Source: a virus
Reading direction: 5' to 3' (one strand)
Length of the DNA stretch: 30,215 bases
Virus record (IMG/VR): IMGVR_UViG_3300046011_004881
Location: 1-30,215 of that record
Position numbers and translations under genes: made by a program. This document shows, in pieces, positions 9,814 to 16,539 of the stretch; within the stretch, counting starts at the first letter, position 1, and each line of letters opens with the position of its first letter. Under the pieces are notes generated by a model, which was given only the letters and a program-made list of their open reading frames with translations, was not told the DNA's origin and did not search any database.

Positions 9814-9896
9814 TAGTCAGGACAGGATTCGAACCTGTAAGTGATAAGTGGATTTTACTTGCCCACACATTGCGCATACCATTCCGCCACCTGACT
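9814..9896 (-). tRNA. Class II tRNA with aberrant anticodon arm (isotype unclear)
   Basis: Acceptor AGTCAGG/CCTGACT and T-arm ACAGG-TTCGAAT-CCTGT are perfect, discriminator A, total 83 nt. The anticodon arm is odd: the best stem GTGGG/TCCAC encloses a 9-nt loop CAAGTAAAA instead of 7, centred on GTA and also containing TAA. It may be a mutated Leu(TAA) or Tyr-like tRNA. Isotype not assignable by eye. Confidence 0.6.
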
Positions 9897-10236: not shown

Positions 10237-10267
10237 CAACTCCACACACATATTCAGCTGTATATCG

Positions 10268-10340
10268 AGCGGAAGACCGAGTACGATTCGGCAACCTCTA
10301 CTTTGGCAAAGTAACGCTCTACCGATTGAGCTACTTCCGC
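10268..10340 (-). tRNA. tRNA-Gly(GCC)
   Basis: 73 nt. Acceptor GCGGAAG/CTTCCGC, loop TTGCCAA, discriminator T. The T-arm is unusual: stem GCCGA/TCGGT and loop ATCGTAC, so positions 54 and 58 read A and T instead of T and A. Confidence 0.85.
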
Positions 10341-10343
10341 ATT

Positions 10344-10505
10344 AAAATAGGAGTGTGTTGTTACACCAAGATACGAGGCTCGTTACGACCTACGTGCGAT
10401 ATCCCATAACGATTTCCTAGGATATTGACTTTTTGTCTGTACGCTCCCACAGGGGGGACAACTCTTTAAAGGATGGCTACTTCCAAGCCCACCTCCTCCT
10501 ATTTT
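10344..10505 (-). ncRNA. Closed structured RNA containing a 23S GTPase-centre-like segment
   Basis: A perfect 10-bp terminal stem, AAAATAGGAG (10344-10353) / CTCCTATTTT (10496-10505), closes 162 nt. On the minus strand the segment 10496-10463 agrees at 29 of 34 positions with E. coli 23S rRNA in helices 42-43 (about 1054-1088), including GGCTT.GAAG.AGCCATC and TTTAAAGA. Further stems are ATATCC/GGATAT, TCCC/GGGA, GTGT/ACAC and GAC/GTC. The second GTPase-centre hairpin (about 1082-1096) is replaced. It lies between tRNA-Gly and tRNA-Thr, as T4's stable RNAs of unknown function lie in its tRNA cluster. Confidence 0.6.
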
Positions 10506-10507
10506 TG

Positions 10508-10581
10508 AGGTCGATCTCGGATTCGAACCGAGGTTTCATGATTACAAATCAAGTGTTCTAGACCAGCTGAACTAATCGACC
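10508..10581 (-). tRNA. tRNA-Thr(TGT)
   Basis: 74 nt. Acceptor GGTCGAT/ATCGACC, loop TTTGTAA, anticodon stem with one T-T mismatch, T-arm CTCGG-TTCGAAT-CCGAG, discriminator T. Confidence 0.9.
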
Positions 10582-10663: not shown

Positions 10664-10797
10664 AAACACTGTTGGGATACCCGTCTCGTCCCAATCTTAA
10701 CGGCTTTATTGAAGTTTTACGATGCATCGGCCGAGGGTGCTACTGCTTTTTTCTCATTCGGTTTGTCGACAACCAGCCTGAGAGTCAGTCAGTGTTT
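10664..10797 (-). ncRNA. Closed structured RNA (134 nt)
   Basis: A perfect 8-bp terminal stem, AAACACTG (10664-10671) / CAGTGTTT (10790-10797). Inside, TTGGGA/TCCCAA, GGTT/AACC around GTCGAC, and a GATGCATC palindrome are seen. No coding frame. It sits between two CAT tRNAs; function unknown. Confidence 0.5.
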
Positions 10798-10799
10798 TG

Positions 10800-10873
10800 T
10801 TGCGGTGGGCTAGATTCGAACTAGCGATTTTGACCTTATGAGAGTCACGAGATGACCACTTCTCTACCCCGCA
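10800..10873 (-). tRNA. tRNA-Met(CAT), second CAT tRNA
   Basis: 74 nt. Acceptor TGCGGGG pairs with CCACCGCA with one bulged A; D stem GAGA/TCTC; anticodon stem TGACT/GGTCA, loop CTCATAA; T-arm GCTAG-TTCGAAT-CTAGC. The TGCGGGGTAGAG start resembles initiator tRNA, but the three G-C pairs of an initiator anticodon stem are absent. Confidence 0.8.
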
Positions 10874-10878
10874 ATGTA

Positions 10879-11505
10879 TTAATTTCTTCCTTTATACCAA
10901 TTTTCTGGTATTTTAGAATCTTTTTTTATTTTTTGATCCTCAACTCCATTTGTGATCCACATCGTTCCATGTTGAGAGTTAGATGATCCACTTTGTTTTA
11001 ATGCATTTGCGTTACCTATTTTTGTTTTTGTTTCTTCTGAATGGGTCTTATTAGTGAACGTATCATATTTAATTTTACCCTCTTTATGTAATCTTTTAAA
11101 TGTCTGAGATCCTAGTACTACAAACTTATCTCTATAATCTTTAGATTTCCACATTAATTTAAGTCGCTTAGAAGCACCTTTTTTCATTTTTTCATGATGA
11201 TCTTCATTAAAAATACCACCTACTCCGCCGGGAGCCAAATTCATACACATCGGGTCTTTTAGTAAACCTTCATTCACCAATTCTCTTTCTCTTTTAGCTA
11301 ACGATTCTCTATCGTTAAATAATTCTAAGATCTCTAATTTAAAATTCTCTCTACCATATTTTCTTATAGATCTTCTAAGTTTGTCTCCGCTTCCTAAATA
11401 ACCATCATTAAAATTAGAAGTCGAATGCATTCCTATGTAGTACTTTCCATTATTAAGATTTGTTGTCTTGTAAATGAAATGGTACTTGTGTTTTTGTCTT
11501 GGCAT
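10879..11505 (-). CDS. Seg-like GIY-YIG homing endonuclease
   Basis: 208 residues. The N-terminal catalytic domain has HFIYKTTNLNNGKYYIGMHS (GIY as FIY, YIG exact), then YLGSG and SIRKYGRENFKLEILE, all typical of phage Seg proteins. The C-terminal end MWITNGVEDQKIKKD and PENWYKGRN is the WITNG...GW.KGR DNA-binding tail shared by many phage homing endonucleases. It presumably cuts near tRNA-Met and spreads its own cassette. The stop lies 5 nt from the 5' end of tRNA-Met(CAT). A CATATTTAT box precedes it. Confidence 0.88.
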   Translation of the reverse strand: MPRQKHKYHFIYKTTNLNNGKYYIGMHSTSNFNDGYLGSGDKLRRSIRKYGRENFKLEILELFNDRESLAKRERELVNEGLLKDPMCMNLAPGGVGGIFNEDHHEKMKKGASKRLKLMWKSKDYRDKFVVLGSQTFKRLHKEGKIKYDTFTNKTHSEETKTKIGNANALKQSGSSNSQHGTMWITNGVEDQKIKKDSKIPENWYKGRN

Positions 11506-13204: not shown

Positions 13205-13276
13205 TTGTCCCGGAAGGAATCGAACCTTCATCTCCAGAGCCAAAATCTGGCATAATAACCGTTCTACTACGGGACA
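13205..13276 (-). tRNA. tRNA-Gln(TTG)
   Basis: 72 nt. Acceptor TGTCCCG/CGGGACA, anticodon stem CCAGA/TCTGG, loop TTTTGGC, T-arm GAAGG-TTCGATT-CCTTC, discriminator A. The stop codon of the upstream GIY-YIG gene lies inside its first 10 nt. Confidence 0.93.
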
Positions 13277-13929
13277 ATTTTACAATTATTGAAATGCCAC
13301 CTTTTCATAGTATTCATCGATCCTTCTTTATTACAAAAAGGACACTTTATTTTTTCTCTTTTTAAACCTTTATTGTGAGATATATAATCAGCTTTTCTTG
13401 TCTTAATAAGTATAGCATTTCTTATCTTCTCTTTTGTTTCTGCAGAAAGACCGTCTTTAATATTCTTTCTAGATCTTGAGGCCTTTTTTGCTATTTCCCT
13501 ATGTGCTTCTTGATCTTTTTTAGAAAAATGATTTTTAGACATTTTTAATTTAACTTGTTCGCTGAGCTTTTTTCCTTTGCGCTTTTCTTGTATTTTTTTT
13601 CTTGATTCTTTACTATGTTTCTTATTAATAAAAGTTAGACCATTTTTTTCTCTACTACCATATCCTCCGCCTACCATAATATTATAAACATCATTATTTT
13701 GTATAAATTCTTTAGTGACAATTTCTTCTTCTCTCTTTAACATTTCTTCTTCACTTTGTAATTCTTCTAAAATTTCTTTAGTAAAATTTTCTTTACCATA
13801 TTCTCTTATTGCCTTTCTTATAAGAGTACCAGAGCCTAAATACGTATCATTTATATTTTTAGTTTTGTGCACTCCAATATAAAAAGTTCCAGTTATAATA
13901 TTAGTGATGCGATATATTATAAAGTGCAT
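13267..13929 (-). CDS. Seg-like GIY-YIG homing endonuclease with C-terminal zinc finger
   Basis: 220 residues. N-terminal GIY-YIG domain: FIIYRITNIITGTFYIGVHK, YLGSG, AIREYGKENFTKEILEEL. The middle is lysine-rich with KKHSKESRKKI and SAETKEKIRNAI repeats, the NUMOD-like DNA-binding modules. A zinc finger ends it: CPFCNKEGSMNTMKRWHFNNC (C2HC-type). The TAG (13267-13269) lies within tRNA-Gln. A likely 5' half of a second tRNA-Gln lies just upstream (13951-13975), as if the cassette had entered a tRNA-Gln gene. Confidence 0.88.
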   Translation of the reverse strand: MHFIIYRITNIITGTFYIGVHKTKNINDTYLGSGTLIRKAIREYGKENFTKEILEELQSEEEMLKREEEIVTKEFIQNNDVYNIMVGGGYGSREKNGLTFINKKHSKESRKKIQEKRKGKKLSEQVKLKMSKNHFSKKDQEAHREIAKKASRSRKNIKDGLSAETKEKIRNAILIKTRKADYISHNKGLKREKIKCPFCNKEGSMNTMKRWHFNNCKIVP

Positions 13930-15653: not shown

Positions 15654-16539
15654 AAAATAAAAGCCTGAGACTATAGCTTTGTGTGTCGAATCTTTGCGAG
15701 GATTATGTTTGTTTCCCCCTTTGTCCAGTTTCTTTTGAAAACTATTCCGACAATGCCGATTAGTTAGACTAATCACCCCTTGAGCTACTTTTATTTGGAC
15801 TACTCTCTTCTTACTCTAATCGTTCAACACTGCCGCGCTGACTAATCCTTGCGAGATTACGACCTTTTCGGAAAACTACTAATTGGCTTGCGACCTCTTA
15901 GTGCAACGAACAACTCGTTACTGTGTAGGCATCTTTCGTCCGTAGCTGGTGAGCGCTTTGGCTTTGTTTAATTTGATTTGCGTCAAAAAGCAAAGTTTAG
16001 CTTGTGGATTGTAAAGGTAGTGGCTCACCGCTGAACCGGCCCCGATTTTGTCAGGGTAGATATTCAACTACCTTATGAAGTATCCCTACCTCGATGTTGT
16101 TAGTAATCTTCGATACCGCGCTTTGGTAAGCAACTGTATAGGATAACAACAGCACCACCTGTTTTTTATCATGCCTTTCGGCTTTAAGACTACGTTCCAA
16201 CAATGAGCAACGCAATGATTTGATCGGATAACCAAACTTTTTGCATGTACCCGTACGGATTATTCTTATTGTTTTTCCAAGCTCAACTCAATGACCCACA
16301 GTCACCGAGTCTATCAACCACTTTCTCTACAGTGTTACCCTCGATAATCAAGGTTGATAGATATTCCGTGTGCATACTCGACCTCTTTTACAAGGCGCAA
16401 GATCATTTTAGCAATTGATCTCACTTTATACCGGTTTCCCGGTTTATTTAACGACTATATGCAGCCGAATGTTATTTATAACTTAGCCGAAGCCTCGTTA
16501 ATGGATAACAGTATGTTCAAAGATCTGTTTGTTAATGTT
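15654..16539 (-). ncRNA. Giant structured non-coding RNA candidate (about 890 nt)
   Basis: About 890 nt with no plausible gene on either strand but dense pairing. Examples in minus-strand reading: CCGG-GAAA-CCGG (16431-16442) and GCC-GAAA-GGC (16173-16182), both GNRA hairpins; a 10-bp long-range stem TCTATCAACC/GGTTGATAGA (16352-16361 with 16310-16319); a 7-bp stem GGTGAGC/GCTCACC across 70 nt (16023-16029 with 15948-15954); AGATCA/TGATCT; AACGA/TCGTT; GATTAG/CTAATC. Two tandem phage promoters lie upstream and a tRNA array downstream. Size, ornateness and tRNA proximity recall the GOLLD and ROOL RNA classes; I cannot confirm membership. Confidence 0.6.

What the first reader, a model, noticed from the sequence alone, without database searches (positions are those of the whole stretch)
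10344..10505. Phage RNA carrying a mimic of the 23S rRNA GTPase-associated centre
Within the tRNA array, a 162-nt non-coding segment closed by a perfect 10-bp stem contains, on the transcribed strand, 34 nt that match E. coli 23S rRNA helices 42-43 at 29 positions (GGCTT.GAAG.AGCCATC, TTTAAAGA). In the ribosome this region binds L11 and EF-G/EF-Tu and is the thiostrepton target. The second hairpin of the centre is replaced by phage-specific sequence, and the rest folds into its own stems, so it looks like a built RNA and not a random rRNA fragment. It might titrate L11 or the L10-L12 stalk, bind translation factors, or evade a defence that senses or cuts this rRNA site. I compared with E. coli 23S from memory.
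Basis: partly seen in the sequence, partly recalled or inferred. Interest (0 to 1): 0.9.

Follow-up and report, generated by a model that had tools for sequence, protein, structure and literature searches.

The report
Phage RNA mimicking ribosome's GTPase centre
Many large phages carry, usually among their tRNA genes, a small RNA that rebuilds the ribosome's GTPase-associated centre outside the ribosome; by inference it captures the host protein (uL11) that normally sits there, and I found no record of such an RNA in Rfam or in the papers I could search.

Summary
On the minus strand, 10505-10344 encodes a 162-nt RNA between phage tRNA-Thr and tRNA-Gly. It contains helix 43 of the 23S GTPase-associated centre (GAC). 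It is therefore a whole GAC domain: a phage-specific stem replaces the rRNA stem, and a variable 'insert' domain is grafted between positions 1090 and 1091. About 200 further viral loci and at least nine named phages (GAP32, CBB, BF, pf16, XacN1, ME3, UNO-G1W1, Milchi, Aeromonas 4_4572) have it. Across 139 non-redundant copies, the strongest co-varying column pairs are nearly all GAC contacts, including the tertiary triple 1072*(1092-1099), which switches from C*C-G to U*U-A (138/139). In 24 distinct bacterial 23S GACs these positions do not vary, so the phage RNAs have evolved independently while keeping the tertiary fold. No Rfam family covers them. No neighbouring protein is conserved, so they probably act in trans on a host component. 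The factor-contact loop (1067-1070) is relaxed while the junction is near-invariant; I infer uL11 binding, probably as a decoy. Fold: near certain. Ligand and purpose: inferred.

The parts
10344..10505 (-). complete GAC-mimic RNA (162 nt), 1 nt from tRNA-Thr and 3 nt from tRNA-Gly
   Evidence: homologues
10496..10505 (-). 5' arm of closing stem P1 (AAAATAGGAG); its last base is the G1055 equivalent
   Evidence: perfect 10 bp with 10353-10344; P1 covaries across the family
10470..10494 (-). helix 43 mimic (1057-1081 equivalents); A1067 equivalent is G at 10484, 1072 equivalent is U at 10479
   Evidence: cmscan; covariation 1057-1081, 1058-1080, 1064-1074
10461..10469 (-). GAC junction UUAAAGAGU (1082-1090), including the 1082-1086 tertiary pair, A1084, A1085, G1087, A1088
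   Evidence: 1082-1086 covaries U-A/C-G/A-U; U1060 139/139 and A1088 138/139
10367..10460 (-). inserted phage-specific domain plus the UCUUG linker (family: UUUG), between 1090 and 1091 equivalents
   Evidence: insert-closing helix pairs at 99/99/90% in register against 84/61/44% expected. In this member the register is off by one base because of one extra base in the linker
10354..10366 (-). helix 44 mimic, 1091-1103 equivalents (GUGUAACAACACA); U1092 (10365) pairs A1099 (10358); A1095 at 10362
   Evidence: triple with U1072
10344..10353 (-). 3' arm of closing stem P1 (CTCCTATTTT)
10507..10581 (-). tRNA-Thr (UGU), upstream neighbour
10267..10340 (-). tRNA-Gly (GCC), downstream neighbour

Best explanation
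A family of phage trans-acting RNAs that fold as a free-standing 23S GTPase-associated centre. SHOWN computationally: secondary and tertiary contacts of the GAC are under selection in the phage RNAs; the RNAs usually sit in tRNA operons on the same strand, often a few bases from tRNAs; no protein gene travels with them. INFERRED: the RNA is cut out of the tRNA transcript by tRNA processing, folds like the GAC, and binds the host ribosomal protein uL11 (L11), the protein that recognises this fold. As a decoy it would withhold uL11 from new ribosomes or compete for it. That would weaken uL11-dependent functions, above all RelA activation (stringent response) and some factor-dependent steps, and favour phage translation. 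The variable insert would be a phage-specific attachment. My rough estimates: GAC fold 0.97; uL11 is the ligand about 0.6; decoy/titration as the purpose about 0.35.
For: (2) MI-APC over all column pairs: the strongest 15 are P1 pairs, 1058-1080, 1092-1099, 1072-1099, 1072-1092, 1082-1086, 1057-1081 and 1064-1074 (z 5-15). Triple C*C-G 102, U*U-A 36, C*U-A 1; position 1072 was free in all search patterns. (3) On 23 diverse members 94.4% of cells pair, 17 of 21 pairs change on both sides, covariation score 0.695 against 0.178 shuffled and at most 0.154 slid. (4) In 24 distinct 23S GACs from two phyla, 1064-1074, 1067-1074, 1082-1086 and the triple do not vary, so the phage lineages diverged far from rRNA yet stayed compensated. 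(5) Junction positions 1059-1060, 1071, 1077, 1079, 1084-1085, 1087-1091, 1093-1095, 1098 are near-invariant, while 1067-1070 (factor/thiostrepton loop) are 72-88% conserved: the pattern expected for uL11 recognition more than for factor contact. (6) 69 of 69 loci with a tRNA on the held piece have the nearest tRNA on the same strand, 56 within 300 nt. (7) No conserved neighbouring protein in 159 loci. (8) uL11 is required for RelA activation (PMC4974054), so removing it has a known effect.
Against: No binding or expression data. Ribosome-bound uL11 is abundant, so a decoy would need high copy number or act on newly made uL11 only. Loss of (p)ppGpp helps about half of tested P. putida phages and hinders the others (PMC12814882), so blocking RelA is not a general gain. 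H44 loop bases G1093-U1094-A1095 and A1098 are also invariant, which fits a ligand at the loops as well. Search patterns fixed part of H44, so invariance there is partly imposed (H43-seeded loci show nearly the same sequences).
Confidence: 0.5

Rival explanations
1. Counter-defence decoy: the RNA is a sacrificial substrate or competitive inhibitor for a host toxin that modifies or cuts the GAC of 23S rRNA, as phage tRNAs can replace or resist tRNA-targeting defences.
For: A GAC-targeting toxin exists: Tre23 ADP-ribosylates the 23S GTPase-associated site (PMC9990079; an interbacterial toxin, not a phage defence). Location in tRNA arrays. Invariant H44 loop bases.
Against: No phage-defence enzyme acting on the GAC was found in the papers searched. 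Ribosomes are in large excess. An enzyme reading loop bases would not explain conservation of the buried junction unless the whole fold is needed.
Confidence: 0.2
2. Recruitment device: GAC-uL11 (or a translation GTPase) is used as a handle to bring the variable insert, or the phage tRNAs, to ribosomes or to an RNP; no titration is meant.
For: The insert is always at the same site, closed by a covarying helix, and has recurrent subfamilies. GOLLD, in the same array, has been reported to bind ribosomes (PMC12286853).
Against: Inserts vary from 19 to 362 nt and share no universal motif.
Confidence: 0.2
3. The GAC is only a robust structural module borrowed from rRNA; the functional part is the insert, and no GAC ligand is bound.
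For: Tertiary fold conserved while the 1067-1070 loop is relaxed.
Against: Loop bases G1093, U1094, A1095, A1098 would not all be needed for a scaffold; the insert is the variable part, down to 19-22 nt in some members (L223, L262).
Confidence: 0.08
4. Fragment of host 23S rRNA captured by chance or contamination.
For: Sequence identity to 23S.
Against: Compensatory evolution absent from the sampled 23S; unrelated flanks; complete named phage genomes. Only L065 and Pd_22F were true 23S among loci read in full.
Confidence: 0.01

Closest known systems
23S rRNA GTPase-associated centre (H43/H44, E. coli 1051-1108)
   Same: Sequence of H43, junction and H44 loop; the secondary pairs and known tertiary pairs or triples tested
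   Different: Free-standing; phage-specific closing stem; 19-362 nt insert between 1090 and 1091, sometimes a second hairpin insert near 1078-1080; U1101 becomes A; loop 1067-1070 relaxed
GOLLD and ROOL RNAs (phage/prophage, near tRNA islands)
   Same: Large-phage ncRNAs in tRNA arrays, conserved core plus a variable part, function unknown; GOLLD lies in the same array here
   Different: Unrelated sequence and fold; those are RNA-only nanocages (PMC12286853)
Autogenous r-protein leader mimics (uL1 on the L11-L1 operon mRNA)
   Same: RNA imitates an rRNA protein-binding site
   Different: Those are cis-acting mRNA leaders in cells (PMC10931766); this is a separate RNA in phage tRNA operons with no linked r-protein gene
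OLE RNA, proposed to sequester RpsU
   Same: Idea of an ncRNA that sequesters a ribosomal protein (PMC12286853)
   Different: Different protein, bacterial not phage, no rRNA-like sequence reported there

Membership tests
LSU rRNA (RF02540/RF02541) | Score at or above the family gathering score over the rRNA length | tested here: not met
   21.8 bits against 50; only the GAC region aligns
GAC fold | H43 and H44 hairpins around the conserved junction | tested here: met
GAC fold | Tertiary contacts 1072*(1092-1099), 1082-1086, U1060-A1088 | tested here: met
   Two covary; U1060 139/139 and A1088 138/139
GAC fold | Binds uL11 | not testable with these tools
   No RNA-protein binding tool
GAC fold | Invariant A1067 and A1095 (factor/thiostrepton contacts) | tested here: inconclusive
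   A1095 138/139; A1067 only 100/139, and G in the window
GOLLD/ROOL | Match to the Rfam model | tested here: not met
   No match at 10344-10505; GOLLD is at 15662-16075
Any Rfam 15 ncRNA family | Match at gathering score | tested here: not met
   Window and nine homologous loci
r-protein operon leader (cis regulator) | Lies upstream of a conserved target gene | tested here: not met
   tRNA neighbours; no protein family shared beyond close relatives or homing endonucleases

The most novel reading that the evidence does not exclude
A widespread phage RNA class reproduces an entire functional centre of the ribosome in trans to capture uL11 (and possibly GAC-acting enzymes), letting phages disconnect host stress signalling (RelA) or protect the ribosome's factor site: a viral mimic of an rRNA domain.
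Probability: 0.35. Interest if true: 0.96.

Novelty: categorically new. Interest (0 to 1): 0.9.

Why it matters
Phage tRNA arrays are long-standing puzzles. An RNA in them that is demonstrably a free GAC gives a specific, testable ligand (uL11) and a route by which phages may handle the ribosome or the stringent response. It also provides a large natural library of GAC variants that evolved outside the ribosome, useful for separating what the fold needs from what factors need. If the ligand is not uL11, it points to an unknown host activity at the GAC.

Tried and rejected
Chance or contaminating rRNA fragment: rejected by compensatory changes and unrelated flanks. L10/L12 stalk as ligand: disfavoured, because the helix 42 stem is phage-specific. 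Conserved partner protein: all-against-all of 4113 neighbouring ORFs gave only homing endonucleases and genes shared by close relatives; small ORFs upstream of the RNA are homologous only within the GAP32/CBB/BF group; an RNA ligase gene (PF09414) adjoins the XacN1 RNA only, among the named phages looked at. Universal motif in the insert: none; a GCACCCCG...GGTAAGGC motif recurs in a subset (10-16 of 149 inserts). RNA folding energy of the single sequence: uninformative. Rfam identity: none. Literature on phage GAC or rRNA mimics in the held library: none found; preprints and most subscription journals could not be searched. No covariance model was built, since insert length made simple two-part matching more suitable. 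Pd_22F and L065 were recognised as true 23S and excluded.

Full report
WHAT IS THERE. The window is a 30,215-base virus record with a minus-strand tRNA array, about 26 tRNAs, homing endonucleases, a thymidylate synthase and a GOLLD RNA. Between tRNA-Thr and tRNA-Gly lies a 162-nt RNA gene (10505-10344). Reading 5' to 3': a 10-nt arm; GAGGUGGGCUUGGAAGUAGCCAUCCUUUAAAGAGU, equivalent to E. coli 23S 1056-1090; a phage-specific insert with its linker; GUGUAACAACACA, equivalent to 1091-1103; and the complementary 10-nt arm. The spacing to the two tRNAs is 1 and 3 nt.

Searching outward from the H43 core, the complement of the 5' arm is preceded in many homologues by CUUUgGCGUAAUAGCACA, at the same offset in nearly all members. 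It is the H44 hairpin of the GAC with U1101 changed to A, which restores a pair with U1090. So the RNA is not H43 plus foreign sequence; it is the complete GAC with a domain inserted between 1090 and 1091. The insert is closed by a helix that covaries in register (G-C, A-U, U-A at its first pair; 99%, 99% and 90% paired over three positions), followed by a UUUG linker. A subset carries a second hairpin inserted near 1078-1080 (for example L172, L139, L120).

HOW WIDESPREAD. About a dozen of those genome hits are real members; the four contigs examined carry phage-type genes. Requiring H43, H44 and closing stem gives 212 hits in 210 loci, 173 distinct, 163 after 90% clustering; the lowest-scoring few are chance. 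Named complete phages with the whole RNA: Cronobacter GAP32, Pectobacterium CBB, Serratia BF and the Erwinia SNUABM relatives, Pseudomonas pf16, UNO-G1W1 and Milchi, Xanthomonas XacN1 and XaC1, Acinetobacter ME3, Aeromonas 4_4572. None of the records examined annotates it as an RNA.

PROOF OF FOLD. Mutual information with APC over all column pairs of 139 non-redundant RNAs ranks GAC contacts first: eight P1 pairs, 1058-1080, 1057-1081, 1064-1074, 1092-1099, the tertiary 1082-1086 pair, and the base triple 1072*(1092-1099), which is C*C-G in 102, U*U-A in 36 and C*U-A in 1. Base 1072 was unconstrained in the search patterns; 1092-1099 was allowed as C-G or U-A only. On a diverse 23-sequence alignment the drawn structure scores 0.695 against 0.178 for shuffles and at most 0.154 when slid, with 17 of 21 pairs changed on both sides. 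In a sample of 24 distinct 23S GACs from two phyla these same tertiary positions are constant (the sample was drawn by similarity and is limited). The phage RNAs have therefore drifted far from rRNA while preserving its three-dimensional contacts. That the named contacts exist in the rRNA (1072 triple, 1082-1086, 1060-1088) is from my knowledge of the GAC crystal structures, not from a paper read here.

CONTEXT. Of 99 distinct loci, 69 have a tRNA on the held piece; in all 69 the nearest is on the same strand and in 56 it is within 300 nt, often 2-12 nt. In others (GAP32, BF, XacN1) the RNA occupies a gap between genes on the same strand. No protein family accompanies it except homing endonucleases and genes of close relatives. 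This argues for a trans-acting RNA with a host partner.

WHAT IT MOST LIKELY DOES. The near-invariant bases are the junction and the H44 loop; the H43 loop that contacts EF-G and thiostrepton is looser (A1067 is A in 100, G in 33, C in 4, U in 2). uL11 is the ribosomal protein known to recognise the folded GAC (knowledge; thiostrepton binds between the uL11 N-terminal domain and H43/H44, PMC9998046). I therefore infer uL11 binding. uL11 is required for RelA activation (PMC4974054); uL11 capture would make cells relaxed. The benefit is uncertain because (p)ppGpp helps some phages and hinders others (PMC12814882). Rivals are a decoy for GAC-attacking toxins (Tre23 is a precedent for the target, PMC9990079), a recruitment handle for the insert, or a scaffold only.

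NOVELTY. No Rfam 15 family matches at its gathering score and none of the paper searches found a description; preprints and many journals were outside reach. Known relatives in concept are cis-acting leader mimics of rRNA protein sites and the tRNA-array RNAs GOLLD and ROOL, but none has this fold or arrangement.

Noticed in passing
window 15662-16075 (-): GOLLD RNA (236.5 bits) in the same tRNA array; the related contig L029 also has both RNAs.
   Followed up: partly
window 10664-10800 (-): Another inter-tRNA segment closed by its own long terminal stem (AAACACUG / CAGUGUUU); no Rfam match and unremarkable folding energy. Could be a further array RNA.
   Followed up: partly
window 9814-9896 (-): A tRNA gene found by the Rfam model (38.5 bits) but missed by ARAGORN.
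   Followed up: no
window 10879-11505 and 13267-13929 (-): Two homing endonucleases (PHROG 314) inside the tRNA array.
   Followed up: no
L298:829-1479: In XacN1 an RNA ligase gene (PF09414) lies directly upstream of the GAC RNA; not seen next to it in the other named phages looked at.
   Followed up: partly
inserts of L002, L004, L039, L041, L118, L150 and others: A recurrent insert motif GCACCCCG-(GNRA)-GGUAAGGC near the 3' end of the insert, defining a structured subfamily across unrelated phages.
   Followed up: partly
phages record MZ092003 (Paenibacillus phage Pd_22F) and several short 'phage' records: Contain true bacterial 23S rRNA, apparently host contamination.
   Followed up: partly
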